DNA from: a virus
Direction: 5' to 3' (one strand)
Length of the DNA: 62,920 bases
Virus record (IMG/VR): IMGVR_UViG_3300037808_000193
Coordinates: 1-62,920 of that record
Shown: in pieces, positions 9,838-43,068 of the stretch
Layout: each line of letters starts with the position of its first letter
How positions within the stretch are numbered: the first letter of the stretch is position 1
Notes under the pieces: generated by a model
What the model was told of the DNA's origin: nothing
What the model saw: only the letters and a program-made list of their open reading frames with translations
Database searches by the model: none
Translations under genes and position numbers: made by a program

Positions 9838-9886
9838 GACCATCTCCTCAACGGTTACCCGCTCATCTTATCCCAGAGACAGAAGA

Positions 9887-9910
9887 AGCCGGGACCCGAA
9901 GGCCCCGGCT
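9887..9910 (-). terminator. Hairpin between capsid and connector genes
   Basis: AGCCGGG and CCCGGCT form a perfect 7-bp GC-rich stem around a 10-base loop. In the minus direction it is followed by TTCTTCTGTCT, a weak U-rich tract. It sits in the gap after the capsid-cluster gene ending at 9937. It could terminate or attenuate the abundant capsid message. Confidence 0.55.
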
Positions 9911-9936
9911 CAATCAGTGATCCCTCGGCAAAGGGG

Positions 9937-12703: not shown

Positions 12704-14069
12704 TCTTCAAGCCTCCAGATGGGTCGATATCAAACCCACCAGTTCCCTTGCGAGCAGCATCAATCAAAGCCTGCCCTGTCTTGCCTTCGCCCACAGCCCT
12801 CATAACACTTGGCTTCCACCGAACTTGGCCAGACCTGGTGACCTCACCAAGACGCACTCCATCTTTGGTGCTGATCTTCCTGCCCTCAACCTTTGTTCCA
12901 CCAGGAATAGCGACTCTTCGCACCTTTCCACCAGGCATCCGGTACGAAACAGTGCTTGTCCCAGCAGTGCCACCACCACGTTTGATATTGCCACCCTTGC
13001 CACCGCTAGCGGCCCTTCCACCACCTGAACCCGAGGTGAACCGACCATCAGAGCCATGGTTCATGTTGTACTTACGAAGCAGGACATGGGCCTTGCCCAG
13101 TGCAATCTTCTTCTGACGTCTGGTCACTTCATCATCTTCCGGTACGGTACTGACATGAACGTCAGACGGGGTGGGCGAGGTCTTCCTGAGACTGTTGCGC
13201 TGGCGAAGCTGAATCACCCTGAGAGCAGATGACGCCTTGTGAGGGAGTGATCCGATCTTCTTCTTGCGTGGCTTCTTCCTCCCACCACCAGCGTTGATCT
13301 TCTTGGCATGACGGACCGATGAGCGGGACAGGTGAGTGCTTGCCGGTGAGGAAGAGCTGAAGCCCCGGCTCACACCCTTGGGCAAGGCCTTGTTGACGTT
13401 GAGCTTCATCTGACGATCATGCATGGAATTCGAGATGCGAGCCGCCTTCTCTTTACTCATTCCCTTCCTCCGAAGTGCTTCGTAGATGTGGGGGTACTTG
13501 ATCGAAGGACCATGATCCCCTCCAGGATTCTTTCGACCTTTGCGCTTGCCACTGATGGTGATGGAATCACCTCTGACGTTTCCACGTCCATCAACTGTGA
13601 AGCCTGAATCGTCAGACTTGGCCACCTTGGCGGCCACGGTGGGAGGAGCTTGCCGACGACGGCCCTTCCCATGGACGGAGAACATCTTGTATCGGCCACT
13701 CTTCACGCCCTTCCAGACCGAATCGTCGTGGACCTTGTACCCCACCCACCAGCCTTCAGGCACAGTCCCTTCCTTGATTCCAAGAGCGGCCATCTTCTCC
13801 TTGGTGAAGACCACACTCTCGACCAGAGTGGCAACACCCTTCTGAACATGCTCAACGCCTCCGTCACGGCTCTTCAGTACGAAGTCATAGGCGGCACGCT
13901 CAAGATCGTCCTCATGCCGGATGTAGTCACCATCATGATCTACAAGGAGCTTGCCTTCCTTGTCCTTGTAGACCTGAGCCCAGCCAAAGACAAGCTGGCG
14001 GTCATCGTTGGTCTTGATGATCTCACAGTCAGTCACTTCATCACCATCTTGTTCTTGTGTAGTTCCCAC
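12696..14069 (-). CDS. XkdF-like prohead serine protease with long basic C-terminal region
   Basis: 457 residues. Residues ~15-150 match the XkdF/S78_2 protease family: 'VFGWAQVYKDKEGKLLVD', 'AAYDFVLKSRDGGVEH', 'VESVVFTKEKMAALGI' and 'WWVGYKVHDDSVWKGVKSG'. The remaining ~300 residues are basic and low-complexity. They carry three recognisable segments: a 'GGDHGPSIKYPHIYEALRRK' helix, 'SPTPSDVHVS' (also at the capsid N-terminus), and 'HGSDGRFTSG' (also in the MuF protein). These repeats suggest cleavage sites or docking points shared by head-assembly substrates. It overlaps the next upstream gene by 37 bases. Confidence 0.7.
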   Translation of the reverse strand: MGTTQEQDGDEVTDCEIIKTNDDRQLVFGWAQVYKDKEGKLLVDHDGDYIRHEDDLERAAYDFVLKSRDGGVEHVQKGVATLVESVVFTKEKMAALGIKEGTVPEGWWVGYKVHDDSVWKGVKSGRYKMFSVHGKGRRRQAPPTVAAKVAKSDDSGFTVDGRGNVRGDSITISGKRKGRKNPGGDHGPSIKYPHIYEALRRKGMSKEKAARISNSMHDRQMKLNVNKALPKGVSRGFSSSSPASTHLSRSSVRHAKKINAGGGRKKPRKKKIGSLPHKASSALRVIQLRQRNSLRKTSPTPSDVHVSTVPEDDEVTRRQKKIALGKAHVLLRKYNMNHGSDGRFTSGSGGGRAASGGKGGNIKRGGGTAGTSTVSYRMPGGKVRRVAIPGGTKVEGRKISTKDGVRLGEVTRSGQVRWKPSVMRAVGEGKTGQALIDAARKGTGGFDIDPSGGLKNA

Positions 14070-18585: not shown

Positions 18586-19995
18586 CTACATGTTGGACCA
18601 GTAGTTGGCCTTCCCCAGAGACTCCGGCATGGTGATCATGATCTGACGTTGACGACCCGCCCAGCACATAGCACCAGCCACCACACTGTCAGGTGGGTGA
18701 GCCTTGCCGAACAGAGCGTCGATCGACACGTACTTGTGCTCAGCAAAGGCGAAGTCGATCATGGGTGAGGTCATCTCATCACTCTCGATTGCAGTGATGT
18801 AGTTGCTGAACAGATCAGTTCTACGTCGACCCGTCATGACAATCGGGGTCACCTTCGGCACGTCCAGGTAGTCATGGACCACATTGCCGACACCTGTTGC
18901 ATCGTGAACCAGCGGTGAGTCGAACTTCTGGCACCTACGGTTCACAGCCTCCACCATCATCGGCCATGGTCTACGGCCCATCCTTGACCAGGCAACACGC
19001 TTCCACGGTGTGCAGTCAGTGCGGAACGTATCGATGATGGTCCAGTCCCTCTCCTTGGCCCAGTCCACCCCGGTGACGTAGTAGCCGTGAGGATCAGGCT
19101 TCTCGAAGGTGAACTCCTGGCCTTCCTCGCCATCCACTCGTTTCCTCTTCGGATCACCGAACCCGAACAGGTGGTTCACCGAATCACTGTCGATGGCCCT
19201 TCCCTCGAAGCTTGGCTCCTGAAGGTCGTACTCGGTCTCCCACATGTGGCGGGACACCTCAGACTTCTTCCTCTGCACAGCGTCAATGGGCAGCCACCCG
19301 TGAGGCTCCATCGTCTCCCGATAGCACCATTCGTAGACAGGCCAGCCTTTCTCGTGCGCCCTGTTGAGAATGACGCTCATCGTCTTGTCTGGGTACTGGT
19401 GAGTAGATGACATCACAATCTGTGACGTGAGAGTGCTCGTACTCATCGGCTGGCCCAGAGACGATTCGAGGATGTCGTACTCCATCTCATCAATCTCATC
19501 GAGGCGGAGACGTTGGGGGTGAGGACCACGGACTGACTTCTGGGATGCCATCAGTGCTCGGACGTATCCACCATTGATCAGCTTGGTGTCGAACTTGGTG
19601 GGCTCCTTGGCCAGCATCCCCACTGGAGCTAGCGGTGCATCCCACATCTCACCCATCACCTCGACCACACGGAGGGACTGGAAGGACGATCCACCCAGAA
19701 CAGTCACCCCAGCTCTCAGGAGAGTGCTCTCAGCCATCGCTAGAGCAGCCAGCGTCTGGCTCTTGCCCCCGAACCCACGAGAGGCCTTCCAGACCGTTAC
19801 GGGGTATCTGGCAAAGAATGCATCAGCAAAGGCCTCGAACGGCGCCCTGTGGTTTGGGCACACCCTCTTGCGTGGGATCTCCATCCCGAATAGGGCCTGC
19901 ATGGCAAACCACAGCTCGTCATCAGTCTGTGGAGGACGCCGCATGACCAACGATGGTGTGGTCGGTCCTGTCCCCTGAGTTGCAAGGTCAGTCAT
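18586..19995 (-). CDS. terL: Terminase large subunit
   Basis: 469 residues. The ATPase domain has Walker A 'KASRGFGGKS' (70-79) and Walker B 'LRLDEIDE' (163-170). The C-terminal nuclease domain shows 'GVDWAKERDWT' (first acidic residue), 'HDATGVGN' and 'HPPDSVVAGAMCWA', typical of RNase H-type terminase nucleases. It drives packaging through the portal encoded next to it. A small-subunit candidate lies at 22131-22979, separated by four other genes. Confidence 0.9.
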   Translation of the reverse strand: MTDLATQGTGPTTPSLVMRRPPQTDDELWFAMQALFGMEIPRKRVCPNHRAPFEAFADAFFARYPVTVWKASRGFGGKSQTLAALAMAESTLLRAGVTVLGGSSFQSLRVVEVMGEMWDAPLAPVGMLAKEPTKFDTKLINGGYVRALMASQKSVRGPHPQRLRLDEIDEMEYDILESSLGQPMSTSTLTSQIVMSSTHQYPDKTMSVILNRAHEKGWPVYEWCYRETMEPHGWLPIDAVQRKKSEVSRHMWETEYDLQEPSFEGRAIDSDSVNHLFGFGDPKRKRVDGEEGQEFTFEKPDPHGYYVTGVDWAKERDWTIIDTFRTDCTPWKRVAWSRMGRRPWPMMVEAVNRRCQKFDSPLVHDATGVGNVVHDYLDVPKVTPIVMTGRRRTDLFSNYITAIESDEMTSPMIDFAFAEHKYVSIDALFGKAHPPDSVVAGAMCWAGRQRQIMITMPESLGKANYWSNM

Positions 19996-31660: not shown

Positions 31661-34326
31661 CAGAGCCCCAGAGACCCGAGTGCCCCAGCATCTTGCAGCT
31701 TGAGTAGCACTCCGTTGAATTCACCATTGGCTGCATAATTCTTCCCTCCTGATACAGCTCTACTATCCGTATTGTTTATCAGATCATCAATGGTGTCGAA
31801 AGGTGCGTTGGTGAATATCTCACTAGCCGCCTTGATGCCAATCCCATCAATCGAGGACAGGCCCTTTCGGATTCCCCTCCTCTTCTTGTCGATGGTCCAC
31901 ACGTCACCAGAGATGTTGACATCGGGTGGCAGGATTCTGATCCCCAGCCTCCTCGCCTCCCTGACGTAGAGCTTCTCCTTCGGAGTGCCAGCTGTCGTCT
32001 CCAGCACTGCCGTCATGTACTCCAGCGGGTGGTGGGTCTTGAGGTAGGCAGCCTGGTAGCCCATCAATCCGTAGGCAGTGGCGTGAGCTTCGTTGAACCC
32101 GTAGTCGGCAAACCCTTTCATCTGATCCCAAACCCAATCTGCCTCTCGGCTACTCATGCCAGCAGCAACACAGTGAGCCTTGACAGCGCCACTGAACTCT
32201 CGGAACACACCATGGGACATCGTGAGCTGAGATCCCGACGCCTTCACTGCATCGAGGAACTTGTTCATCAGCTCGTAGCCCATGCCAAGATCCCGCAGGA
32301 TGTCCATGACTTGCTCCTGGTAGAGCACCACGCCCTGAGTCGTCTTCAGCGCCTTCTCGATACAGGGGTGAGGGTAGTCAGGGGGTGGGACACGCTTGAA
32401 TCGACGGTCGATGAACGTGTCGGTCTGGCCAGTCTTCATAGCTGCGGGCCTGAAGAGGGCCATGGCGTCGATGCAATCCTTCACCGTCCTCGGCTTGAGC
32501 TTCTTCGTTCCCCAAGCGTTGGCCTTGCCATCGAACTGGAAGATGCCGTTGTTCGGCTCCACCTTGCGGAGTGCCTTGAACGTCTCCTGGTCCTTGAGTG
32601 GAATCCACCCGAGACCATCGAGTGGGTCACGGTCGATCATCTCCAAGCACCGACGCATGGTGGTGAGTGTCCTCAGCCCGAGGAGGTCGAGCTTCACGAA
32701 GCCCAGCGCCTCCACTTCCTTCATCTCATACTGGGTGACGGTGTTCTTGCTCGATGGGATGAGCATGGTCGGCACGTAGTCAGAGATCGGTAGCCCTGGT
32801 GGCTCGATGATGAACCCGGCAGCGTGCGACCCTGGTGCCTTCGAGATGTCCAGGCCACCCAGACTCCTGATGATCAGCTGCTCGTCTTCCGGCAGATCGG
32901 AGATGGTGTCGACCCATCCGTACTTGGCCTTGAAGTCTTCTGGACCCATGTCCCGACGTTTGCGGGAGATGTACTGCACGAACAGTGACCCCCGGTCATA
33001 GTCATCGACACCCATGGAGTTGTAAGTGCCAATCTGACAGATGGTGTACTTGTCACTCAGGTAGTCAACGATGTCCTGACGGCGAGTGTCCTCTACGTCT
33101 ATGTCGATATCTGGTGGCTTGGTCCTGTCTTCGGTCATGAACCGATCGAACCCGACCTTCCATTCGATGGGGTCGATGTTGGTGATGTCGAGCATGTAGC
33201 AGACGAGTGACCCGTTGGCCGATCCTCGAATGTTGAGGAGGATGCCCTGCTTCCTGGCCCAGCGGCACACCTTGGCCACGAAGAGCAGGTAGTCAGCAAA
33301 CCCCGTCTTCTCGAACACCTCGATCTCGTGCTTGAGCCTCTTCATGTACTTCGACGGGATGCTGTCTGGCCACCACTCTGCAGCTGCCTTCCACAACAGG
33401 TTCTCCATCGACCTCTGCGGGTTCTTGGCCACGTGTGGCACTTGGAACCTGTAGTTGTCGATAGCTGGTATGGCCATCTTGTTCAGGTCGATGATGTCTC
33501 TGAAGGACGCCAGAGCTGCGTTGTAGACCCGCTGGGTCGTCCTGGTCTCGGCGTAGTGGTCCTTGATCCACTTCTGCTTGCACAGGTGATAGGCGTCACC
33601 AGGGAAGGCCGCATCGTCGTCTGGGTCCAGGCCATGGATGACCATCCTCTTCATTGCGTCGTGCAACGGGACCTGATCGAGGTGGCAGTAGTGAGAGTCG
33701 TTGGTGATGACCACTGGGATGCCGGTCTTGTTGGCGATCTCCCAAAGTGCCTCGGTGATGCTGACATCATCAGATGAACCATCCGGCTGGATGGTGTTGT
33801 GCATCTGAGTCTCGATGTAGGTGTGAGGGAACCTCTGGGCAAACCACTGGGCGATGCCTATGGCTCTCTGCTCACCATGGTTCAGCAGAGTCTGGATCAG
33901 AATCCCGAAGAAGCAACCTGTGGTGATAAGGACATCAGCACCACAACGCTGGGCAAGAATGTCCAGGTCGTCGAAGTCGATCCTTGGCTTCCGGTGGAAG
34001 GCTGATCTTTGGTGAGAGCGGGACGATAGCTCGACCAATCCCTTGTACCCGTCGAGGTTCAGAGCCAACACACCCATGTGGTAACGCTTGGCGTCCTTGT
34101 CGGCCTTGTCGTGGACGAGGTAGAACTCCTCGCCAGGGAAGGGCGCAAGGTTGTGTTTCTTGCTGGCCTTGTATAGCTCGATCGTTCCCGACATGTTCCC
34201 ATGGTCGGTGAGAGCTATCCCCGGCTGATTGTTACGTGCAGCAGTCTCGACCATCTCAGTCACTGAGCCCATGGCGTCTAGCGATGAGTAGTGGGAGTGT
34301 GCGTGCAGATGAAAGAACGAACCCAT
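31660..34326 (-). CDS. dnaE: DNA polymerase III alpha subunit (DnaE-type)
   Basis: 888 residues against about 1,160 for bacterial DnaE. The PHP domain begins 'FHLHAHSHYSSLDAMG' (His6, His8, His10). The polymerase palm has 'RGSANGSL' (368-375) and the catalytic triad 'PDIDID' (D406, D408, D410). A thumb/fingers region follows, and a short helix-hairpin-helix ('SSIDGIGIKAASEIF') lies near residue 840. The C-terminal OB-fold and tau-binding region are missing, so clamp-loader contacts may differ. I found no clamp or separate proofreading gene; proofreading could come from the PHP domain. It would be the main replicative polymerase. Confidence 0.9.
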   Translation of the reverse strand: MGSFFHLHAHSHYSSLDAMGSVTEMVETAARNNQPGIALTDHGNMSGTIELYKASKKHNLAPFPGEEFYLVHDKADKDAKRYHMGVLALNLDGYKGLVELSSRSHQRSAFHRKPRIDFDDLDILAQRCGADVLITTGCFFGILIQTLLNHGEQRAIGIAQWFAQRFPHTYIETQMHNTIQPDGSSDDVSITEALWEIANKTGIPVVITNDSHYCHLDQVPLHDAMKRMVIHGLDPDDDAAFPGDAYHLCKQKWIKDHYAETRTTQRVYNAALASFRDIIDLNKMAIPAIDNYRFQVPHVAKNPQRSMENLLWKAAAEWWPDSIPSKYMKRLKHEIEVFEKTGFADYLLFVAKVCRWARKQGILLNIRGSANGSLVCYMLDITNIDPIEWKVGFDRFMTEDRTKPPDIDIDVEDTRRQDIVDYLSDKYTICQIGTYNSMGVDDYDRGSLFVQYISRKRRDMGPEDFKAKYGWVDTISDLPEDEQLIIRSLGGLDISKAPGSHAAGFIIEPPGLPISDYVPTMLIPSSKNTVTQYEMKEVEALGFVKLDLLGLRTLTTMRRCLEMIDRDPLDGLGWIPLKDQETFKALRKVEPNNGIFQFDGKANAWGTKKLKPRTVKDCIDAMALFRPAAMKTGQTDTFIDRRFKRVPPPDYPHPCIEKALKTTQGVVLYQEQVMDILRDLGMGYELMNKFLDAVKASGSQLTMSHGVFREFSGAVKAHCVAAGMSSREADWVWDQMKGFADYGFNEAHATAYGLMGYQAAYLKTHHPLEYMTAVLETTAGTPKEKLYVREARRLGIRILPPDVNISGDVWTIDKKRRGIRKGLSSIDGIGIKAASEIFTNAPFDTIDDLINNTDSRAVSGGKNYAANGEFNGVLLKLQDAGALGSLGL

Positions 34327-34369
34327 ACGGACTCACCTCCGTTCTTAGTTTGCCACCTAGAAATGAGTG

Positions 34370-34400
34370 AGGGGTAGGCCCGGTGGGAAGGCCTACCCCT
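34370..34400 (-). terminator. Strong hairpin after the SSB-like gene
   Basis: AGGGGTAGGCC and GGCCTACCCCT form a perfect 11-bp stem with a 9-base loop. In the minus direction it is followed by CACTCATTTCT. It lies between the SSB-like and polymerase genes and probably lowers polymerase expression relative to SSB. Confidence 0.7.
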
Positions 34401-34482
34401 CTGCCAGGTCGGTGGGTCCCTGACAAGAACCACACTACCTGACTATTGGTGAGAACGCAACCCTAGATTAGGATCGCATCTT

Positions 34483-35436
34483 TCAGGTGACGGCATCCTC
34501 GATTGCGTCGATGTAGACCTGACGGTTCTTCGACGACACCTTGAGGCCGATCTCCTTGGCCAAGGTGCGGAGTGCAGTGATCTTCATGTCTGGCAAAGCG
34601 TCGAGGTCAACGGTGATGGACTCTTCGTCATCATCAAGGTCTTCATCATCGTCATCGTCCAGATCGAAGTCATCGTCGTCATCATCGTCTTCGTCATCAT
34701 CGAGGTCTTCGAGGTCGTCGTCATCTTCCTCGTCTTCCTCTTCATCTTCATCTTCATCACGACTTGCCCGGCGAGATCCCTTCCTCGTGGTGGGCTTGGC
34801 TCGTCCCGACTTGTCCTTCGGCTTACGACGTGGCTCCTCTTCTTCCTCGTCATCGTCATCCACATCGTCAATGTCATCGTCGTCGAAGTCGTCCTCTCCC
34901 GAGACCGCCTTCTCCCACTCCTCGTACATGCCGATGAGGAATTCCTCAGTGTCGACGACCTTGTACTTCTTGAGGTTGATCTTCGACTCGTCCATGGGAT
35001 CGAACCGATATCGGGTGTCGGTTCCCTTGCCCCGACGAGTCAGCTCGAAGTCACGGTCCATGATGGTCCCACGCTTCTCGCAACGAGCAAGCAGATCATC
35101 TGCCAGTGACGACGGCAGCTTCATCGGGTAGACCTTCCCCTCCTCAATATCGAGGACACAGGTCATCACCCGCTTTGAAGGACCGAAACGTCCACCGGAT
35201 GCTTCTCCGTCATCACCCTCTACAAGGGGACGGAACATCCTGACCTCTTCATCGAAGACCTCTCGGTAGCCAGTCCAACCATCGGGCTCGGTGAGGAATC
35301 GCACCATCACGTCTTCATCTTCCCCGATGAACTTGACGAAGTGCTCTCCACCTCCCTGCTTCAACCTCTTCTTGGCTTCTTGGATGGAGCCGAATTTGCC
35401 CCCTCCTTGAAGCTTGACCTTCTTCTTCGTTGCCAT
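34483..35436 (-). CDS. SSB-like protein with long acidic linker and SAP-like C-terminus
   Basis: 317 residues from ATG 35436 (AAGGGAG site). Residues ~1-165 look like a phage ssDNA-binding core, with 'RMFRPLVEGDDG', 'MTCVLDIEEGKVYPMKLPSS' and 'RYRFDPMDESKINLKKYK'. From ~175 to 265 there is a basic patch inside an extreme Asp/Glu run. The last ~40 residues 'PDMKITALRTLAKEIGL' are a SAP-type DNA-binding helix pair. Acidic tails of SSBs recruit partners, but a DNA-binding module after the tail is unusual. It stands alone between terminators, upstream of the polymerase gene. Confidence 0.65.
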   Translation of the reverse strand: MATKKKVKLQGGGKFGSIQEAKKRLKQGGGEHFVKFIGEDEDVMVRFLTEPDGWTGYREVFDEEVRMFRPLVEGDDGEASGGRFGPSKRVMTCVLDIEEGKVYPMKLPSSLADDLLARCEKRGTIMDRDFELTRRGKGTDTRYRFDPMDESKINLKKYKVVDTEEFLIGMYEEWEKAVSGEDDFDDDDIDDVDDDDEEEEEPRRKPKDKSGRAKPTTRKGSRRASRDEDEDEEEDEEDDDDLEDLDDDEDDDDDDDFDLDDDDDEDLDDDEESITVDLDALPDMKITALRTLAKEIGLKVSSKNRQVYIDAIEDAVT

Positions 35437-35723
35437 GTTGCTCCCTTGAGCTGATCTTGACACCGCCAGTGACTCACGTACTGACTGGTGATAACCATAT
35501 CACAGAGGTGTGATTCGGTGTTCCATGACCCTACTGACGGGGTGGGACATTACGTTTCACCTGCATCCGAAGGACATATATAGGAGTAACGGTGGTTGCT
35601 GCTCCTGAGTCCAGGCGAGAAGAAACCCCGACCCAGTACGTCGGGCCGGGGCTGCTTCCCTAGCAACTCGGAGGTGAGTGGCTCCGAACTTGTCTCTCTA
35701 CTTATAGGAAGGATTGCTGTTAC
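35437..35723. other. Gene-free region upstream of the SSB-like gene
   Basis: 287 bases. It contains a 6-bp inverted repeat GTGATA-ACCA-TATCAC (35488-35503), a TATATA-containing AT-rich patch (~35578-35584) that may be a -10 for the SSB-like gene, and a terminator (35626-35651). I see no open frame with a ribosome-binding site. Confidence 0.6.
35626..35651 (-). terminator. Intrinsic terminator
   Basis: In minus-strand RNA, CCCCGGCCC pairs with GGGUCGGGG (9 bp, one G-U) around GACGUACU, followed by UUUCUUCUCG. It ends the operon of the DUF6283-like gene. Confidence 0.7.
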
Positions 35724-36119
35724 TCACGGTCTCCGCAACTTCCTCTGAGCCTTGACGATCTTGTCGATTTGGTCCTCAGCTTCTGGGGTCAACGGCATCA
35801 GGCCGTTAGCTCTCGCTTCCTCGCCTGAACCGAACACCTCGACACCACTCGGCTCTGGGGGTTCGATCCCATATATACGCAGAGCGAGTAACTCGTGGTG
35901 ATGACCTCTGTTGCTGTGACAATCACCCCAACCACGGCACATCTTCTGTGTCTCACCCAATCCTGACCAGTGGCACAGGAACTTGGCTGGTGGTTGATGC
36001 ATCGTCTCCGCATCGAACTCGACGAGCTTGTCGTACTCGTCTGGGTGCCACACAGCTGGTGGAACGTCCTTGCGGTACGGACACGAGGGACATGGAACGT
36101 CCCTGAACTCCTCAATCAT
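35724..36119 (-). CDS. Conserved phage protein, DUF6283-like
   Basis: 131 residues from ATG 36119 with GTGAGGTGAG upstream. The N-terminal 'VPCPSCPYRKDVPPAVWHPD', 'HQPPAKFLCHWSG' and 'CRGWGDCHS' carry the Cys/His pattern of a small family common in actinobacteria and their phages (DUF6283 as I recall). Possible metal binding; unknown function. It is preceded by a two-hairpin intercistronic element. Confidence 0.65.
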   Translation of the reverse strand: MIEEFRDVPCPSCPYRKDVPPAVWHPDEYDKLVEFDAETMHQPPAKFLCHWSGLGETQKMCRGWGDCHSNRGHHHELLALRIYGIEPPEPSGVEVFGSGEEARANGLMPLTPEAEDQIDKIVKAQRKLRRP

Positions 36120-36138
36120 CTGACTCACCTCACTTTCT

Positions 36139-36190
36139 CCTGCCCTGAGAGCAGGTGGAACCCCACCACCGAAGTGATGGGGAACCATCT
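36139..36190 (-). ncRNA. Two-hairpin intercistronic element A
   Basis: Minus-strand order: AGATGGTT, stem CCCCATCAC-TTCG-GTGGTGGGG (36161-36182), TTCCA, then stem CCTGC/GCAGG (36139-36155), then the ribosome-binding site of the gene ending at 35724. It begins five bases after the upstream stop. Same architecture as elements B-E. Confidence 0.75.
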
Positions 36191-36194
36191 GGCA

Positions 36195-36641
36195 TCAGAG
36201 TGACGATTCCCAAAGGTTGATCTCTTTGACAATCTGCTTGTCGATCCGAATCGCTCGGAACGGCCACTTCTCGGCCCGAGTGCAGACACGAGCTACATGG
36301 TTGCCCTTGCGTATCGTCCACTGCGTCTCGGTGGTCTTGCCTGTGCGATGTCCGCAGGCAAGCACATCCATCTCGTTGTGATTTGGTGCCTTCGACGCTG
36401 GCTGATCCAGAGCAACGATCACCGTCCAGTGTTTGCATCGGGTACAGAACCCGAGCCACATCCAGTCAATGCCTTTGCCCTTCTGATCGCCGTCGTAGAT
36501 CATCACGTAGGAGTCGGAGGAATCCAACACCTGACGGATGGTCGTCGGTGACGGGCCAATGCCGAACTCCCCAGGGGTTCCGCCCTGGGTGATCAGGATT
36601 CCGTGCATGAGGTCCATTGCTTGCTCGGTATCAGTCATCAC
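36195..36641 (-). CDS. Hypothetical protein with Cys pair
   Basis: 148 residues, 'GEFGIGPSPTTIRQVLDS', 'IDWMWLGFCTRCKHWTVIVA' and 'DVLACGHRTGKT' give a Cys-x2-Cys and Cys-x-His group. The ATG overlaps the previous gene's stop, so this is the one gene in the block without its own hairpin leader. Unknown function. Confidence 0.55.
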   Translation of the reverse strand: MMTDTEQAMDLMHGILITQGGTPGEFGIGPSPTTIRQVLDSSDSYVMIYDGDQKGKGIDWMWLGFCTRCKHWTVIVALDQPASKAPNHNEMDVLACGHRTGKTTETQWTIRKGNHVARVCTRAEKWPFRAIRIDKQIVKEINLWESSL

Positions 36642-37027
36642 TTCACCGTCACTCTCAGGTAGGGCCTCTTGGGCGTTTCGGTTGTTGCTGATTCGATCAA
36701 CTTCTCGTCGATCTCTCCCAGCGCCACCGCTGCTTCGAGGAGCTTGGGGTCGATCACCTTCTTGGTGACCTTCTCCACTACATCCTCTGGCAGATTGTCC
36801 AGAAGCTCTACCGGGTCGATGTTGCGAGTGACTCCTGCCACGAGGGCAATTTGGACATCACCACGTGAGGTCCCCCGAATGAGGTCCCTCTCCATGTCAC
36901 CTTTGACCATCGTTTCGATGATCTGCTCTTGGAAGGATCGGTACTCCGCCTCGGACTCCTCCTTGGACTCCTTGGCATCGAGCATGTTCTCGACCCAACT
37001 CAGCTTGATCTTGGCTGGTTTCGCCAT
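36638..37027 (-). CDS. Hypothetical helical protein with C-terminal RVTVK
   Basis: 129 residues from ATG 37027 (GGAGGTGAGAA upstream). Starts MAKPAKIKLSWVENMLDAK; helical and charged throughout, ends 'TPKRPYLRVTVK' (short basic motif). Possible DNA- or RNAP-associated factor. Preceded by element B. Confidence 0.55.
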   Translation of the reverse strand: MAKPAKIKLSWVENMLDAKESKEESEAEYRSFQEQIIETMVKGDMERDLIRGTSRGDVQIALVAGVTRNIDPVELLDNLPEDVVEKVTKKVIDPKLLEAAVALGEIDEKLIESATTETPKRPYLRVTVK

Positions 37028-37050
37028 GATCTTCTCACCTCCGTTTGTTT

Positions 37051-37101
37051 CCTGCCGGATGACAGGTGGAAGGGCACCTCCGAAGAGATGCCCAACCATC
37101 T
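37051..37101 (-). ncRNA. Two-hairpin intercistronic element B
   Basis: AGATGGTT, stem GGGCATCTC-TTCG-GAGGTGCCC (37072-37093), TTCCAC, stem CCTGT/GCAGG (37051-37066), then the GGAGGTGAG site. It starts three bases after the stop at 37104. The first stem changes five base pairs compared with element A while keeping pairing and tetraloop. Confidence 0.75.
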
Positions 37102-37103
37102 AC

Positions 37104-37229
37104 CTACCGACTGCCTGACCAGTAGCTCCTAAGCAGCTCGAACTGTCCGTTGGACATCATCGCCACGATCAGAATCACGATCACGACGATGGCTGTCCAT
37201 GTCAGGTTCCTGAACGTTGTCTCAGTCAC
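37104..37229 (-). CDS. Small single-pass membrane protein
   Basis: 41 residues from GTG 37229, overlapping the upstream stop by 8 bases. MTETTFRNL is followed by a hydrophobic helix of about 18 residues ('AIVVIVILIVAMM') and 'FELLRSYWSGSR'. Likely inner-membrane peptide in the early operon. No family is recognised. Confidence 0.6.
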   Translation of the reverse strand: MTETTFRNLTWTAIVVIVILIVAMMSNGQFELLRSYWSGSR

Positions 37230-37689
37230 GTCGTGCCGAGCTTTGTGTCGGGATGTTCACCTTGACCTTGCCACCACGCCTCGGAGCAGATGGCCTGCCT
37301 GCCGCCAGGAGGGCGTCGACATCCAACTCGTCCAGAGTCTCGATGGTTTCGGTGACCATGGTGATGTAGTCATCAGCATCCTCTTCGGATACGTCAGACG
37401 TGTCGATGCCTGCGTACTTCTGCAGCATCGCCTTGGTCATCAGGTTAAGCACCCCGAGTGTGTTCGGGTCCCAGTCGAGGAACAGTCCGTTCCGCTTGGG
37501 AAGCCACTCTCCCTTACGAGCTGACCAGTACCACTCCCGAAGGTTGACGTGATGCGTGACGGTCGGGCCGTCATACTTCGTCATCTCCACGAGAGTCGCC
37601 ACCAGCTTGCTCTTGTCTTCTACCAGGACGTGCTCGAAGAGCGTCTCAATGTCCTTGTAGTCAGGCTTGGGTGTCGCTTGCTTTGCCAT
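37222..37689 (-). CDS. Hypothetical protein, PC4-like impression, C-terminal GKVKV
   Basis: 155 residues from ATG 37689. 'VTHHVNLREWYWSARKGEWL' and 'PKRNGLFLDWD' resemble the strand-turn signature of PC4/YdbC-type ssDNA-binding coactivators, but I am not sure. The C-terminus 'RRGGKVKVNIPTQSSARRD' carries the shared motif. Preceded by element C. Confidence 0.5.
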   Translation of the reverse strand: MAKQATPKPDYKDIETLFEHVLVEDKSKLVATLVEMTKYDGPTVTHHVNLREWYWSARKGEWLPKRNGLFLDWDPNTLGVLNLMTKAMLQKYAGIDTSDVSEEDADDYITMVTETIETLDELDVDALLAAGRPSAPRRGGKVKVNIPTQSSARRD

Positions 37690-37709
37690 TGTTCTCACCT
37701 CACTGTTGT

Positions 37710-37765
37710 CCTGCTGAGTAGCAGGTGGAAGCTCACCCCCATGGTTAGGGGATGAGCAACCATCT
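37710..37765 (-). ncRNA. Two-hairpin intercistronic element C
   Basis: AGATGGTT, stem GCTCATCCCC / GGGGGTGAGC around TAACCAT (37731-37757), TTCCAC, stem CCTGC/GCAGG (37710-37725), GTGAGGTGAGAA, ATG. It begins two bases after the stop at 37767. Compensatory changes relative to A, B and E. Confidence 0.75.
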
Positions 37766-37766
37766 A

Positions 37767-37862
37767 TCACTCAGCCTTGGTGATCTGATCCAACGCAACC
37801 TCGGCAATACGAAGCTTCGCCTTCAGGATCTCGATCTCACGCCGTAGCTGTTTCTTGGTCAC
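37767..37862 (-). CDS. 31-residue coiled-coil peptide
   Basis: GTG at 37862 overlaps the upstream stop (GTGA). The sequence begins MTKKQLRREIEILKAKLRIA, a charged heptad-like helix. Supported by coupling and exact fit between the neighbouring gene and element C. Confidence 0.45.
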   Translation of the reverse strand: MTKKQLRREIEILKAKLRIAEVALDQITKAE

Positions 37863-38308
37863 TTGCCACCACGAGTCTGAACCTTGACCTTGCCGGTGGC
37901 CTTGGCTACCGGCTTCTTCTTGGCCGTGGCTTTCTTCGTGGTAGGTGCTGTCTTCTTGGCTGCCGCAGCTTTGGGTGTTGCCTTGGTCGGAACCTTGGCC
38001 TTGCCCTTGGGCCGTTCCTGCTTCTTGGCAGAATCGGCCTTGGCTTTGGACTCCCTCCGAGCTTTGCGTGCCGATCGTTCGGCAAACGCTTCCTCAGAGT
38101 TGAGTTCCTTCACCCGTTCCTCGGTGCCTTCGCCTCCGACAAGACCAACTCCAGGGATCTCCATGATCCCGTCTGAATTGATCGTCTCGAAGATCACCAT
38201 GGCCAGAGCGTCGAGAACTTCCTCGACATGCTTCTTGGCGTCCGATGTGCGACACCTCGTCTTCACTGCGTCATAGACAACCGATCCTACGATCTCTTGA
38301 CCTGACAT
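37859..38308 (-). CDS. HU-like DNA-binding protein with histone-H1-like tail
   Basis: 149 residues from ATG 38308. Residues 8-60 resemble HU: 'VVYDAVKTRCRTSDAKKHVE' then 'LDALAMVIFETINSDGIMEI' and 'PGVGLVGG', without the full DNA-binding arm. The rest is Lys/Ala/Pro-rich ('KKTAPTTKKATAKKKPVAKA') and ends GKVKVQTRGGK. It probably compacts phage DNA or remodels the host nucleoid. Preceded by element D. Confidence 0.65.
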   Translation of the reverse strand: MSGQEIVGSVVYDAVKTRCRTSDAKKHVEEVLDALAMVIFETINSDGIMEIPGVGLVGGEGTEERVKELNSEEAFAERSARKARRESKAKADSAKKQERPKGKAKVPTKATPKAAAAKKTAPTTKKATAKKKPVAKATGKVKVQTRGGK

Positions 38309-38329
38309 GTGATTCTCACCTCCGTTATT

Positions 38330-38380
38330 GGTGCCGGTTAGCACCATGGGATGCACCCTCCCCGAAGAGAGGATGCACCC
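38330..38380 (-). ncRNA. Two-hairpin intercistronic element D (divergent member)
   Basis: Stem 1 (38349-38380) pairs GGGTGCATCC-TCTC with GGGA-GGGTGCATCC through 14 bp (two G-U pairs and a G-U in the inner part) closed by TTCG. Stem 2 is GGTGC-TAACCG-GCACC (38330-38345), then GGAGGTGAGAA. The sequence differs from A, B, C and E but the two-stem plan, UUCG loop and position right after a stop are the same. Confidence 0.65.
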
Positions 38381-38386
38381 GAGTTG

Positions 38387-40327
38387 TTAACCGGCCGTTG
38401 CGACGACGCTCCGCATTGCTCGAACAACCATGGCCTTGGTCATGGTCACAACGTCGTCGAAACTCTCGACGTTGCTAGCCACACTGCAGCCATGATCACC
38501 ATGAGACACAGCTCCGTTGATCCCGTACAGGGCAGTAGTCACGCCCGCACGGTTCATCGACTGGATCACTTCATCTCCTCGATTGCTGGCCCAGTGACCA
38601 TCGGTCACCGTGACCATCATCCGAATCGAATCTGAATCCCTCGACAGGAGCCAGTGTGCTGATTTGCTCAAGCAATCGCCTGGGTCAGTGCCTCCCCTCA
38701 TCTTGAAGGAGAGCATCTCACCAGACTTTGCTTTGTCACCCACGTCATAGACGATGAATGACTCGGTGTTGTAGGCGTACACCACACAGTCTCCGCCAAC
38801 CTGGTCGACGGAACGCTTCAGCAGCCAAGCAGCCCGAGCTACTTCACTCGACATCCCGGCCATCGACCCTGAGATATCCAGGGCAACCGCCATGTTGATA
38901 CGAGTTGCGTAGTCATTGTCTTGGAACGAGTCGAACGGTTCCCGAAGGAAGCGTTCGCCAGCTTCAGCTTGCATGATGCGTGAGATGTTGGGCCGACCGA
39001 GACGGTCAGGTTCCCAAGCACCCTCAGCCTGAACACGAAGGTCCCCGAAGACACGAACGATCTTCTTGGAAGCCATACGGTCATCGCCAGTAGCACTCAC
39101 TGGGGAGCCGTCGATCCTTTCGGTATCAACGCCCTTGCCCTGTGACATCACCTGTCGAATCGACTCAAAGATCTCATCGAGATGCTCACTGGCGACTTCA
39201 CTGTCCTGTGCCTCTGATTGAGCCTGGAAGAGTTCCGAGGTGATCTCGTCACTCGTCCAGTCGTTGACATCAGGACTATCACTCCCTGCCGACTCCCCAC
39301 CTGGGGTGTCGCTGGAAGATTCGTCTGTGTTATCCGAACCATGGTCATCACTGGCAGCCTCACCAGAGGTTTCCCCCTGGCCATCCTGCCCGACATCCCC
39401 ATCGTTGCTGTCCACTTGCTCTTGCTCTTCGTCGTTGTCGCCGTCCATGTCGTCATAGTCGACATCGTGGGACTCGATGTGTTGTGCGTCGGCATCTTGA
39501 CTATCTGCCTTCGCACCATCTCGACGCTGACGCCCCGTCTTCTCTGAATCGTCAGGACCACCCCTCTCGGGACGATCCGGCCAGTGACCAACTCCTGATG
39601 CTTGATCACCGTTCGCCATCCTCTCGGAGCCCGAAGGCATACCCGATTCGTTGGATGGCTTGGTGATGATCGTGTGGATACGATCCACAATCACTCTCAC
39701 ATCCGACTCGGAAGACGGAGTGAGTATCAGTCGTTGGTACTGCCTGACCAGAGATTCGATCTCGTCAGCGTGCCCACTTGGCTCGAACATGGCCTTCGCA
39801 CCGTCCCTCAGAGACTGAGGAAGGTAGTGACGGCCACACACGAGAAGCCACAGCCCGTCGTCCACGTTCTGGAGTCCGCCCCTGAGGTTAACCAGGAGGT
39901 CTGTCACCAGATTGGTAAAGAGGTCTTCAGCCACTTCGTAACGACTGACGAACAAACGCTCGATGCGTTGGTCCTCCAGAACGTTGAAGATGAACATCTT
40001 CAGCGTGTCGCCGAAGAAGCTGCCAGCCACCTTGTACCAAAGGTCAAAGGGTGTGTAGAGCACGTGTGCCACTTCGTGGTAGTTCACACCGATCAGGTTC
40101 CGAAGAAGTGATCGGGTGAGATCCGGTGGTGTCCCATCTGCTCGTCGCCCGTACTTGGTTACGTTGAAGGTGATAACACCACCATCGGTCCATGCAGGAG
40201 CATTCGCAAGATGAGCACTGTGTGGATGACCACGAGTGACTCTCAGCTTGGTATGTCCGGTGATGATCTGATCCGTCTTCTGAAGGACCCTCATCGCCGC
40301 ATCAAGCTTACGCTCAATACTTATCAT
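38387..40327 (-). CDS. Putative metallopeptidase-VWA protein (CobT-like partner)
   Basis: 646 residues. The N-terminal domain has 'GVNYHEVAHVLYTPFD' (HExxH: H84, E85, H88) and 'FNVLEDQRIERLF' (E118, candidate third ligand), as in putative metallopeptidase-VWA proteins. Residues ~255-360 are an acidic linker. A C-terminal VWA domain has the MIDAS 'ALDISGSMAG' (D484, S486, S488). In cobaltochelatase and MoxR systems such VWA proteins are partners of the AAA ATPase, which here is the next upstream gene. Phage role unknown. Preceded by element E. Confidence 0.75.
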   Translation of the reverse strand: MISIERKLDAAMRVLQKTDQIITGHTKLRVTRGHPHSAHLANAPAWTDGGVITFNVTKYGRRADGTPPDLTRSLLRNLIGVNYHEVAHVLYTPFDLWYKVAGSFFGDTLKMFIFNVLEDQRIERLFVSRYEVAEDLFTNLVTDLLVNLRGGLQNVDDGLWLLVCGRHYLPQSLRDGAKAMFEPSGHADEIESLVRQYQRLILTPSSESDVRVIVDRIHTIITKPSNESGMPSGSERMANGDQASGVGHWPDRPERGGPDDSEKTGRQRRDGAKADSQDADAQHIESHDVDYDDMDGDNDEEQEQVDSNDGDVGQDGQGETSGEAASDDHGSDNTDESSSDTPGGESAGSDSPDVNDWTSDEITSELFQAQSEAQDSEVASEHLDEIFESIRQVMSQGKGVDTERIDGSPVSATGDDRMASKKIVRVFGDLRVQAEGAWEPDRLGRPNISRIMQAEAGERFLREPFDSFQDNDYATRINMAVALDISGSMAGMSSEVARAAWLLKRSVDQVGGDCVVYAYNTESFIVYDVGDKAKSGEMLSFKMRGGTDPGDCLSKSAHWLLSRDSDSIRMMVTVTDGHWASNRGDEVIQSMNRAGVTTALYGINGAVSHGDHGCSVASNVESFDDVVTMTKAMVVRAMRSVVATAG

Positions 40328-40357
40328 GTTCTCACCTCTTGTTAGTTGCTAAACCAC

Positions 40358-40412
40358 CCTGCCTGAGAAGCAGGAGGAAGGGCACCCCTTCGCAGAGGGA
40401 TGCCCAACCTTC
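40358..40412 (-). ncRNA. Two-hairpin intercistronic element E
   Basis: AGAAGGTT, stem GGGCATCCCT / AGGGGTGCCC around CTGCGA (40380-40405), TTCC, stem CCTGC/GCAGG (40358-40374), then 40 bases and GAGGTGAGAAC before the ATG. Starts seven bases after the ATPase stop. Confidence 0.75.
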
Positions 40413-40418
40413 TATCTC

Positions 40419-41303
40419 TCAGTCTTCGTACTCGACTCCGTACTCCCTTTCCAGGTCCGCACGGTTCAGGTCGAACACGTTCTTGACTGCCATCTTCTCG
40501 TCTGCAGAGAACGCATTGACGAAGTTGTCGATCGCACCGTCGAAGCTCACGGCTTGAGCAAGTTGCTCAAACTCCATGAGCTGATTCGTGGCCACGGGAG
40601 TTTCGATGTTCCCCTCGTTGTGCTGAGCCCTGATCTGTCGGGCAATTCGCAGCAACGTATTGGAGAACACCAGCTGCTCCTCGGTCACGTCGTCGTAGTC
40701 GAACGACATCTTCACGGCGAACCGATTCTTGAATGCGTAGTTCAGGGGCCTCGTACCCTCGTAGTCGGGGTTGTAATCGCCGATCACCAGCAGCTTGCTG
40801 TTGGCAATGATGATTTCACCACCGTTCTCCACGAGAGAGATGGTCCGACGTTTGTCAGTCAAGCCGAACATGGTCGCAGCCACCTTGGCAGGGAGGAAGT
40901 TCACCTCGTTGAGGAGGAGAACGCCACCGTGCCTCGCCAGCTTGGTCACAGGTCCGTCTTGCCAGACGTAGCCAGCACCAGTCTTCTTTGGTGCGTAGGT
41001 CCCGAACAGCATCGCCGGATCGGCAGCACCGTTGCATGGAACGCTGTAGACGGGGAAGTTGTTGCGTGCTGCGTAGGCGTATACCGCACTGGTCTTGCCA
41101 GTGCCGGTTGGGCCGTCGATCAACACGCTGTACCCGAGCCGATGGGCTTCGCCGAGGAACTCGAACTCACTCACACCAGATGACACTTCCCGACTGATGT
41201 AGTCGGTGTCGTACCAGCTGGGGGGAATGAGGTCCGCAACCTCTTTGTTCCAGGCCGGGGCCTTCTTCTTCGTCGCAGTCTTGGTTGTTGTAGCAGTAGC
41301 CAT
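40419..41303 (-). CDS. CobS/MoxR-like AAA+ ATPase
   Basis: 294 residues. Walker A 'DGPTGTGKTSAVYAYAAR' (K70), Walker B 'GGVLLLNEVNFLP' (N132-E133, with Asn where Asp is usual), sensor 'LLVIGDYNPDYEGTRPLNYA' and an arginine-finger region 'LNYAFKNRFAVKM'. It pairs with the metallopeptidase-VWA protein downstream. CobS-like genes are known in several phages but their role there is not established. The N-terminus is a Thr/Lys-rich tag. Confidence 0.8.
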   Translation of the reverse strand: MATATTTKTATKKKAPAWNKEVADLIPPSWYDTDYISREVSSGVSEFEFLGEAHRLGYSVLIDGPTGTGKTSAVYAYAARNNFPVYSVPCNGAADPAMLFGTYAPKKTGAGYVWQDGPVTKLARHGGVLLLNEVNFLPAKVAATMFGLTDKRRTISLVENGGEIIIANSKLLVIGDYNPDYEGTRPLNYAFKNRFAVKMSFDYDDVTEEQLVFSNTLLRIARQIRAQHNEGNIETPVATNQLMEFEQLAQAVSFDGAIDNFVNAFSADEKMAVKNVFDLNRADLEREYGVEYED

Positions 41304-41433
41304 TTCTGTTCACCTCACGTTGAGTTGCGTAAGGAGGACAAGATGTAGCTAAACACCTCGCCCTCCACAGAAGACACCGAGCAAATTACAAGTTGCTAAG
41401 TGGTCATTAGATCAGTCGCAGCTGACTTTACAG

Positions 41434-41772
41434 TCAGGGTGTGACATCCATCATCGGTGGCCAGGATGCTTGTGAGGGTGTAGGGGCGTCTTCCGCCCCG
41501 GTGAGATCAGCTTCTGACCAGCATTCCCGGTATGCACACTGTGCAGCCCAGGTGATTGCCTTGTAGTAAGCCTTCGCCCAGTCACCCTCGTCATCCCACT
41601 TGAACGTCTTGATGATTGATGGTCGCCGACGGTTTCCCTGTCGGTCATGAGAGGGACCGTGACCAAACACGGTCACTTTGGAGGCTTCCGCATCGGGATC
41701 TTGCAATACCCGATAGGTGCATCCCATCCCTTCGATGGTTGCCATCGTCATCTCTTCGATCGTAAGCGTCAT
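41434..41772 (-). CDS. Hypothetical protein, first in leftward early operon
   Basis: 112 residues from ATG 41772 with GGAG at the right distance; the frame is open further to 41883 but without a site. 'MATIEGMGCTYRVLQDPDAE', 'IIKTFKWDDEGDWAKAYYKA' and 'WAAQCAYRECWSEAD' look like a small alpha/beta protein. Unknown function. It follows the gene-free region. Confidence 0.55.
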   Translation of the reverse strand: MTLTIEEMTMATIEGMGCTYRVLQDPDAEASKVTVFGHGPSHDRQGNRRRPSIIKTFKWDDEGDWAKAYYKAITWAAQCAYRECWSEADLTGAEDAPTPSQASWPPMMDVTP

Positions 41773-42467
41773 GGTTACTCCGTTCCGCCCGATGTCCTCT
41801 GTGGAGGTGAGGTGAGAATTCTGTTCTGATCGGCATCGCCCGTCACATTGGGCTCGGACCGTATGGATTGCTAGGCACTTCAACAGCTTGGGAACCGCAT
41901 CTCCTGGTCTTCATCTACCTCCAAGAGCCCTTCCACAAACCTCTGTAATCCACAGACGACCATTCGCCACTTCAGAATACTGACTTTATGTCATCCTCTC
42001 ACTAGGTGAGATTCTGACCTCTCAGGCTGCACGTGCGTTCCTAGCTCATGCATCGCCCGAACGGTTACCTATCACTTTCACGGTGGGATACTTGCTCCCA
42101 TCGACAATTACTCGTGATCCCTTGCCATTGTCAGCGTGTCCGAAGGCTTGCTCTATCGCCTGCCGGTTGCTTCTCTGTTGATTGTCAAGATGCGTCTTAG
42201 TCAAGTCTGACCGACACCATCGAAGTAGCTAGGCTCCCGCCCCTCATAAGTGGGCTTTGCAAGATCACGAGACCGGACTACCAAGGGTCGATTCCGTAGG
42301 GTTCTAACCCCTACCTACCCTGCCGAATTACAGAATTCAGAACACTTGCCACTAGGGCCAACAGAGGTTTGATCCTCCGCCATGTTGTTCTCACGGCTTG
42401 TCACTCAGTCGTTCTCACTCTTGCCATGGCACGCATAGTCCAACGATCGGACCGTTCCTAGTTGTCC

Positions 42468-42496
42468 TAGCCCCGTAGCCGATTGATACGGGGCTA
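42468..42496. repeat. 10-bp perfect hairpin
   Basis: TAGCCCCGTA and TACGGGGCTA around GCCGATTGA. Inside the gene-free region, no neighbouring stop codon to explain it as a terminator. Confidence 0.7.
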
Positions 42497-42726
42497 AGTC
42501 CCTGGTCATGCCTAGCGTTCGATTGTCAAGGTGCTAGATCCCTATTGGAACCCATTGGGAGCTGTCACCCAGACTCCCAGTCTGAGCCATCACTCCCGGC
42601 CCGAGTAGACCGAATCACCGACCTACTCACCTAGGACACTATCACAGCTAGTGAGGTTGTAACAGGGACCCTAGGGGTCCCCTGTCGGCACCCTGGCACC
42701 CTGGCAGTAGGCCTAGGGTCACCACT

Positions 42727-42788
42727 AGCACAGAATCGATTCTAAGGCCTCTCAGAGCCGTTCTAAGGCCCTACTAGGATTCTGTGCT
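42727..42788. repeat. 11-bp inverted repeat enclosing two direct repeats
   Basis: AGCACAGAATC and GATTCTGTGCT flank two copies of TTCTAAGGCC. It could form a long cruciform; candidate origin or protein-binding element. Confidence 0.7.
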
Positions 42789-42997
42789 ATGGGTATAGCC
42801 AAACACCCTGGCAAGCTCTTAGAGAGCCTCTCAGGCACCTCTCCTGGCAAGTGAGGTTTCTAGCACCTAGGCCACATTGACCAGCCCGACCCCTCACTGA
42901 GATCATATGAAAGGTCATGAGATAACCAAAGATTCCATTCTCACCTGTATCATGACTTTCCAGGTATTTCATGCAATTCTAGGGAGGATGTGATTCT

Positions 42998-43068
42998 GGC
43001 AGAAATTCAGCGACACTCAGCATTTCTGTTTTGGGCTTCTGAGGCAGAAATTCTCTCGTCGCTCAGTA
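42998..43068. repeat. Pair of direct repeats upstream of the H1-like gene
   Basis: GGCAGAAATTC followed by a CGnC(n)CTCAG end occurs at 42998-43022 and 43043-43067, spaced 45 bases. ATTTCTG between them makes an inverted copy of CAGAAAT. It resembles multiple operators in a promoter region. Confidence 0.6.

What the first reader, a model, noticed from the sequence alone, without database searches (positions are those of the whole stretch)
36139..40412. Family of five two-hairpin intercistronic RNA elements with covarying stems
Five gene junctions in one operon (elements at 36139, 37051, 37710, 38330 and 40358) carry the same arrangement on the minus strand: a stop codon, 2-7 bases, AGAUGGUU (AGAAGGUU in E; not in D), stem 1 of 9-14 bp, UUCC(A)CC, stem 2 of ~5 bp (CCUGC/GCAGG or GGUGC/GCACC), a linker, and a GGAGGUGAG ribosome-binding site. 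Stem 1 sequences differ (CCCCAUCAC/GUGGUGGGG, GGGCAUCUC/GAGGUGCCC, GCUCAUCCCC/GGGGGUGAGC, GGGCAUCCCU/AGGGGUGCCC) but stay complementary, including a shared AU followed by a U-G pair. Three members have a C(UUCG)G loop. Compensatory change at five places shows selection for RNA structure. The elements avoid the coupled gene pair at 36638, so they seem to belong to junctions without translational coupling. Possible jobs: processing sites, transcript stabilisers, or insulators of translation. I know no described family with this layout.
Basis: partly seen in the sequence, partly recalled or inferred. Interest (0 to 1): 0.8.

Follow-up and report, generated by a model that had tools for sequence, protein, structure and literature searches.

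The report
Two-state RNA punctuation between phage genes
Between the early genes of several unrelated phages of actinobacteria sits the same small RNA device, one hairpin plus a strand that can pair either with the end of the gene before it (often with its stop codon) or with itself, which suggests that ribosomes finishing one gene reshape the messenger RNA in front of the next.

Summary
All five elements are in the window on the minus strand, at every uncoupled junction of the cobS-to-36 kb operon. The reading needs extending. AGAUGGUU and UUCCACC are not linear motifs: UGG/CCA pair across a UU/UU loop and extend stem 1. The segment holding stem 2 is also complementary to the region at the upstream stop codon, so each element has two exclusive folds, a long hairpin over the stop or two hairpins. 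The family is not confined to this phage. A covariance model built from four window copies finds copies in three unrelated metagenomic phage contigs and, weakly but at the right junctions, in cultured Streptomyces phages (Beephvirinae), where most early-operon junctions carry it. Across 17 aligned matches (two doubtful), 15 of 17 pairs change on both sides and 98.5% of cells pair. The joint two-state layout fits 40 of 60 junctions against 4-8% in shuffles. No Rfam family matches. A conserved bistable RNA element is well supported. Gating by the terminating ribosome, and the output (most likely mRNA processing and end protection, like T7 RNase III sites), are inferred. Cultured hosts make this testable.

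The parts
36139..36198 (-). Element A: upstream stop TGA 36197-36195; weak outer strand CTGA 36198-36195; P2 UGG/CCA; stem 1 CCCCAUCAC 36182-36174 / GUGGUGGGG 36169-36161 with C(UUCG)G; stem 2 CCUGC 36155-36151 / GCAGG 36143-36139 with UCUCAG in its loop
   Evidence: the extended fold is weak here and the two-hairpin fold is the MFE
37051..37111 (-). Element B: stop TAG 37106-37104; stem 1 GGGCAUCUC 37093-37085 / GAGGUGCCC 37080-37072 with C(UUCG)G; stem 2 CCUGUC 37066-37061 / GGCAGG 37056-37051; extended fold pairs GUCGG..GGUAG over the stop
   Evidence: no strict joint fit
37710..37775 (-). Element C: stop TGA 37769-37767; outer strand O GCUGAGUG 37775-37768 pairs O' UACUCAGC 37720-37713; stem 1 GCUCAUCCCC 37757-37748 / GGGGGUGAGC 37740-37731; alternative stem 2 CCUGC 37725-37721 / GCAGG 37714-37710
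38330..38395 (-). Element D (divergent): stop TAA 38389-38387; O GCCGGUUA 38395-38388 pairs O' UAACCGGC 38340-38333; 14-bp stem 1 38380-38367 / 38362-38349 with C(UUCG)G; alternative stem 2 GGUGC 38345-38341 / GCACC 38334-38330
   Evidence: not found by model R1, found by the structure-only scan
40358..40422 (-). Element E: stop TGA 40421-40419; O CUGAGAG 40422-40416 pairs O' UUCUCAG 40369-40363; P2 AGG/CCU (compensatory to UGG/CCA); stem 1 GGGCAUCCCU 40405-40396 / AGGGGUGCCC 40389-40380; alternative stem 2 CCUGC 40374-40370 / GCAGG 40362-40358
36124..36133 (-). SD GUGAGGUGAG of the gene after element A (ATG 36119)
37034..37042 (-). SD GGAGGUGAG of the gene after element B (ATG 37027)
37694..37703 (-). 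SD GUGAGGUGAG of the gene after element C (ATG 37689)
38315..38323 (-). SD GGAGGUGAG of the gene after element D (ATG 38308)
40331..40339 (-). SD AGAGGUGAG of the gene after element E (ATG 40327)
40419..41303 (-). CobS-like AAA ATPase gene, upstream of element E
38387..40327 (-). CobT-like gene between E and D (weak family matches; similar to Gordonia phage proteins annotated CobT-like or von Willebrand)
37104..37229 (-). Unlisted 41-aa ORF with a hydrophobic stretch, GTG start overlapping the previous stop; its stop is the one in element B
37767..37862 (-). Unlisted 31-aa ORF, GTG start overlapping the previous stop; its stop is the one in element C
35724..36119 (-). DUF6283 gene, downstream of element A

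Best explanation
The elements are copies of a cis-acting, two-state RNA element that punctuates early polycistronic mRNAs of actinophages. Shown by sequence: a constant hairpin 1 (8-14 bp, usually a UUCG or UCCG loop, a U.U internal loop and a 3-6 bp foot), followed by a strand S-O'-S'. S pairs S' to make stem 2, while O' (lying in the stem-2 loop, often running into S') pairs in register with a strand O at or just after the upstream stop codon, making one long irregular hairpin. The two folds share bases and largely exclude each other. Inferred: a ribosome finishing the upstream gene covers O, so translated transcripts take the two-hairpin form, while transcripts without a terminating ribosome take the long hairpin. 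Inferred output, most likely: mRNA processing and stability. The long duplex is a substrate for a double-strand endonuclease such as RNase III, and in the two-hairpin form hairpin 1 caps the upstream mRNA 3' end and stem 2 caps the downstream mRNA 5' end just before its SD, so that each cistron keeps its own protected, independently initiated message.
For: Covariation: on 5 arms with trimmed loops, 100% of cells pair and 6 of 17 pairs have double changes; on 17 matches, 15 of 17 pairs have double changes and 98.5% of cells pair, against 45-61% when slid. Held-out homology: model R2 from window A, B, C, E hits L040 (52.6 bits), L329 (42.5) and L295 (30.7), and in whole Beephvirinae genomes its six best hits (E 4e-4 to 0.01) all lie at early-operon gene junctions in the coding sense. 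Phages without detectable shared proteins carry it. Second fold: O:O' register difference is 0 in 34 of 58 elements against 3.4% of shuffled ones; the joint O-H1-S-O'-S' fit is 40/60 against 4-8%; loop-upstream complementarity has mean score 12.0 against 9.4 (sd 0.33) with permuted loops, 0 of 2000. In most of 10 examples the long hairpin is the MFE, and blocking the 5' arm gives two hairpins in all five window elements. The same operon region has ordinary T-tailed terminators (35645-35627, 34401-34369), which the elements are not. T7 uses RNase III sites to split its early polycistronic mRNA (PMC4858673), and Streptomyces has RNase III, AbsB (PMC2936110).
Against: No RNA ends, RNase or translation data were available, so gating and output are inference. 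O overlaps or abuts the stop in many elements, but in others it lies 8-17 nt downstream, where a terminating ribosome may not reach it. Window A has only a weak O:O', and B, L040 and L329 give no strict joint fit. A pseudoknot in which O:O' and S:S' form together is not excluded, because O' often fills the stem-2 loop exactly. The duplex in L040 and L329 is short for RNase III. The 60 elements are not independent: many are orthologous junctions of related phages, and Zeigle and JXY1 are near-identical in this region.
Confidence: 0.42

Rival explanations
1. Plain RNase III-type processing sites of the T7 kind: the extended hairpin is simply cut to separate cistrons, with no sensing of translation; stem 2 is a 5' cap of the downstream product.
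For: Same position as the T7 early sites (between early genes), long irregular duplex with internal loops; T7 precedent.
Against: Does not by itself explain why O so often includes the stop codon and why stem 2 reuses the same strand; the duplex is short in L040 and L329.
Confidence: 0.22
2. Translation control at the junction: the stable hairpin right after the stop blocks post-termination ribosomes from drifting, or the long hairpin brings stop and next SD close together to favour coupling or reinitiation.
For: Present at uncoupled junctions with their own strong SD and absent at overlapping start-stop pairs; the long hairpin spans from the stop to just before the SD.
Against: Neither fold pairs the SD consistently; predicted SD accessibility did not change in a common direction with a ribosome placed at the stop.
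Confidence: 0.2
3. A binding site for a phage- or host-encoded RNA-binding protein that regulates the early operon; the U.U loop and, in the window, the CAUC/GGUG core are the recognised parts.
For: UU/UU loop and GG/CC foot are conserved across unrelated phages; repeated at many junctions.
Against: Most of stem 1 is free to change, and the CAUC/GGUG core is not kept outside the window and L040; no candidate protein is shared by these phages.
Confidence: 0.1
4. Transcription terminators or attenuators at each junction.
For: GC-rich hairpins in intergenic gaps.
Against: No T-rich tail; the terminator scan finds the two ordinary terminators in the region but none of the five elements; five successive terminators in one operon would silence its end.
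Confidence: 0.04
5. Paralogous DNA repeats or DNA-binding sites without an RNA role.
For: Window copies share flanking words and probably arose by duplication.
Against: Compensatory changes across unrelated phages, single-strand orientation and fixed place between stop and SD.
Confidence: 0.02

Closest known systems
T7 early RNase III processing sites (R0.3 to R1.3)
   Same: Hairpins with internal loops at junctions of early phage genes; would separate a polycistronic early mRNA
   Different: Here two exclusive folds are conserved, one partner strand covers or abuts the upstream stop, a second hairpin precedes the SD, and up to most junctions carry it. Cleavage not tested
SAS / ESAS of cluster K mycobacteriophages (PMC3203893, PMC12699233)
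   Same: Repeated elements upstream of starts in the non-structural half of actinophage genomes, ESAS with inverted repeats
   Different: ESAS has conserved 17-bp repeat sequence and a 13-bp SAS; here the arms vary freely with compensation and no SAS occurs in the window or in phage Manuel
Translation-sensing attenuators (trp-type leader peptides; speF leader, PMC6386406)
   Same: Alternative RNA folds chosen by where a ribosome stands
   Different: Here the proposed sensor is the stop of an ordinary full-length gene, repeated at many junctions, and no terminator hairpin with a T tail is present
T4 gene 32 operator pseudoknot and gene 60 bypass hairpin (PMC3014915)
   Same: Phage mRNA structures near starts or stops
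   Different: Single-gene elements without this layout; here the downstream frame has its own SD and AUG

Membership tests
Any Rfam 15 family | Match at or above the gathering score | tested here: not met
   No match in the window, only tRNAs in three Beephvirinae genomes; permissive scan gives one chance-level miRNA hit on the other strand
T7-type RNase III processing site | Intercistronic position between early genes | tested here: met
   Between stop and SD in the window, G001, G002, G003 and Beephvirinae
T7-type RNase III processing site | About two turns of interrupted duplex | tested here: inconclusive
   Extended fold has about 20-28 bp in C, D, E and many Beephvirinae copies; short in L040 and L329
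T7-type RNase III processing site | Cleavage by RNase III in the internal loop | not testable with these tools
   Needs RNA-end mapping or in vitro cleavage
SAS/ESAS of cluster K phages | 13-bp GGGATAGGAGCCC at the start, up to two mismatches | tested here: not met
   0 matches in the window and in Manuel
SAS/ESAS of cluster K phages | 17-bp inverted repeats of conserved sequence | tested here: not met
   Arms differ between copies with compensatory change
Intrinsic terminator | GC-rich hairpin followed by a T-rich tail | tested here: not met
   Scan of 34000-42500 lists none of the five elements but does list the terminators at 35645 and 34401
Ribosome-gated alternative RNA structure (attenuator-like) | Two conserved mutually exclusive folds | tested here: met
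   Register and joint-fit tests; shared bases in C, D, E. A pseudoknot reading is not excluded
Ribosome-gated alternative RNA structure (attenuator-like) | Ribosome position changes the fold and gene output | not testable with these tools
   Only predicted by constrained folding

The most novel reading that the evidence does not exclude
A new class of phage RNA device, repeated at most junctions of early operons in unrelated actinophages, in which the stop codon of each gene is one strand of a switch (or pseudoknot) that reads whether that gene is being translated to its end and sets the fate of the mRNA before the next gene.
Probability: 0.35. Interest if true: 0.9.

Novelty: new variant of a known kind. 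Interest (0 to 1): 0.72.

Why it matters
Actinophage early operons are large and mostly uncharacterised, and little is known of how their polycistronic messages are cut, protected or balanced. An RNA element that recurs at most junctions in cultured Streptomyces phages and in unrelated environmental phages points to a general post-transcriptional device. Its two-state design with the stop codon as a partner makes a direct, testable link between translation termination and mRNA fate. It is also a ready-made part for building operons in actinobacteria.

Tried and rejected
Close relatives of the window: none by DNA in the phage collection or by single proteins in viral contigs; CobS relatives at 24-46% identity have other junction hairpins but not this element. 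Pattern hits in GTDB genomes were chance or coding matches without the stems. Lake-phage hits (L179, L182, L218, L241) fold into a similar-looking hairpin, were not placed at a junction and were set aside. R1 gave no match at E<=1e-4 in 61 genomes of one genus and 198 of one phylum reached through actinobacterial loci, but only 30-99 candidates per genome were scored, so this is weak evidence of absence. SD sequestration was modelled and gave no consistent direction. Terminator, ESAS, Rfam and DNA-repeat readings were rejected for the reasons given. A reversed-sequence control for the structural scan proved unsuitable because inverted repeats survive reversal; I used the opposite strand and shuffles instead.
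Full report
Observation. The window is a 62,920-base IMG/VR virus record. Its CobS-like AAA gene is related at about 43% identity to proteins of Gordonia phages GMA6, DalanDe, Gray and UBSmoodge and Brevibacterium phage Cantare, so it is probably an actinophage; no close DNA relative was found. In the stretch from cobS (40419-41303) to the DUF6283 gene (35724-36119) every junction with a gap carries one, and the three overlapping start-stop junctions (36638; small ORFs starting at 37229 and 37862) carry none.

Anatomy. The words AGAUGGUU and UUCCACC are two sides of a helix: UGG pairs CCA across a UU/UU internal loop, and in E both sides change together to AGG and CCU. Stem 2 follows this foot without a linker. 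RNAfold and inspection show a further partner: in C, D and E the strand that holds the stem-2 loop and part of its 3' arm also pairs with the sequence at the upstream stop (C GCUGAGUG/UACUCAGC, D GCCGGUUA/UAACCGGC, E CUGAGAG/UUCUCAG). The long hairpin and stem 2 share bases, so they are alternatives. The extended fold is the MFE for B, C, D and E and the two-hairpin fold for A; blocking the 5' arm, as a ribosome at the stop would, leaves two hairpins in all five.

Homologues. A pattern scan of viral contigs with the window consensus gave 16 hits, of which one (L040, IMGVR_UViG_3300028800_000139) folds into the element between a stop and an SD-AUG. Two broader scans gave L295 and L329, at the same kind of position, and then L394, L399, L400 and the less complete L377. 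L394 is Streptomyces phage JXY1; L399 and L400 overlap and are relatives of the same group. A model built only from window copies A, B, C and E scores L040 at 52.6, L329 at 42.5 and L295 at 30.7 bits in 0.9 Mb. These loci were fetched by flanking words, but stem-1 complementarity and the place between stop and SD were not selected for. The same model, run on eight whole Beephvirinae genomes, seven of them chosen only by relatedness to JXY1, gives best hits at E 4e-4 to 0.01, the top six all at early-operon junctions in the coding sense. The window shares no protein detectable at tblastn 1e-6 with Beephvirinae, G001, G002, G003 or L377, so either the element moves between phages or the design has been reached more than once; the shared GGUU...UUCC foot favours common origin.

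Covariation. On five arms with loops trimmed by me, all cells pair and 6 of 17 pairs change on both sides. On 17 cmsearch matches, which include two doubtful ones (L439 and a fragment of L447), 15 of 17 pairs change on both sides and 98.5% of cells pair, against 45-61% for slid structures and 68% for shuffled ones. That alignment is fitted to the model, so the percentage leans in its favour; the trimmed alignment does not have that bias.

Two-state test. Sixty elements were used: the five in the window, those from the other contigs, and all 55-125 nt gaps in the early region of eight Beephvirinae. Complementarity between the stem-2 loop and the region upstream of hairpin 1 is higher than with loops permuted among elements (mean 12.0 against 9.4, sd 0.33, 0 of 2000). 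The best upstream-downstream helix is exactly in register with hairpin 1 in 34 of 58 elements, against 3.4% in shuffles. The joint layout O, hairpin 1, S, O', S' fits 40 of 60, against 4-8% when upstream, downstream or both are shuffled, and in 30 non-redundant fits the O:O' and S:S' positions use several Watson-Crick types each. O often begins at or within a few bases of the stop codon, for example UGAGC/GUUCA, UGAAC/GUUCA and CUAGCA/UGCUAG at junctions of related phages. In many elements O' exactly fills the stem-2 loop, so a pseudoknot with both helices is possible; the register result argues that the continuous long hairpin is itself selected, and overlap of O' with S' in C, D and E argues for exclusive states. 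This is not settled.

Function. Shown: a conserved RNA structure with two conserved pairings, at uncoupled junctions of early operons. Inferred: the terminating ribosome masks O and favours two hairpins. Inferred: the output is processing and end protection. The position parallels the T7 early sites, where host RNase III cuts a 7-kb early polycistronic mRNA at five places (PMC4858673), and Streptomyces has an RNase III, AbsB, that acts on mRNA (PMC2936110). The elements are not terminators: the same region has two ordinary T-tailed terminators (35645-35627 and 34401-34369) and none of the five elements scores. SD occlusion is not consistent.

Known families. No Rfam 15 match. The ESAS elements of cluster K mycobacteriophages (PMC3203893) are the nearest actinophage precedent, but they have conserved repeat sequence and a 13-bp SAS that is absent here. 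The one open paper found that names Beephvirinae (Abafar) does not mention hairpins. Most subscription papers and all preprints are outside my reach, so novelty is stated only against what I could search.

Verdict. A real, conserved, previously unlisted RNA element family, now with cultured hosts. The mechanism is a reasoned hypothesis at about 0.4.

Noticed in passing
41884-43000: About 1.1 kb without convincing genes or tRNAs upstream of the early operon; Bendigovirus relatives have a gap of about 1 kb at the matching place (e.g. L010 7229-8408).
   Followed up: partly
L441 38664-38827 (also L442, L443, L444, L445, L446, L447 at matching places): A longer (about 160-210 nt) conserved structured segment in Beephvirinae early operons with CACGGUGAAGG-GCACAGG...CCUGUGC-CCUCUCCGUG arms and a conserved AUAAGUA; looks like a second RNA element.
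   Followed up: no
L440 27732-27942, L442 41614-41845, L443 41488-41718: Another conserved intergenic segment with GUCCGCUAGGGCGUCCGCCCGGAGUC...GUGACGCUAGUCAC in Beephvirinae.
   Followed up: no
L009 (Cantare) 8228-8305, 9877-9941, 12753-12818, 19314-19393: Repeated inverted repeat AUACAUAGA..UCUAUGUAU at several gene junctions of Brevibacterium phage Cantare; looks like a protein-binding (operator or stoperator-like) site.
   Followed up: no
L010 8929-9014, 9229-9318; L011 9299-9380: Bendigovirus junctions carry another hairpin type, CUCCGGGUG-stem followed by UUUCA, not this family.
   Followed up: partly
34483-35436: SSB-like protein with a very long Asp/Glu-rich stretch before its C-terminus.
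   Followed up: no
L179, L182, L218, L241: Lake-derived phage contigs share a long GAUGGUU-stem-UUCCAUC hairpin; apparently not at a gene junction.
   Followed up: no
37104-37229 and 37767-37862: Two short ORFs (41 aa with a hydrophobic stretch; 31 aa) start inside the preceding stop codon and end at elements B and C.
   Followed up: partly
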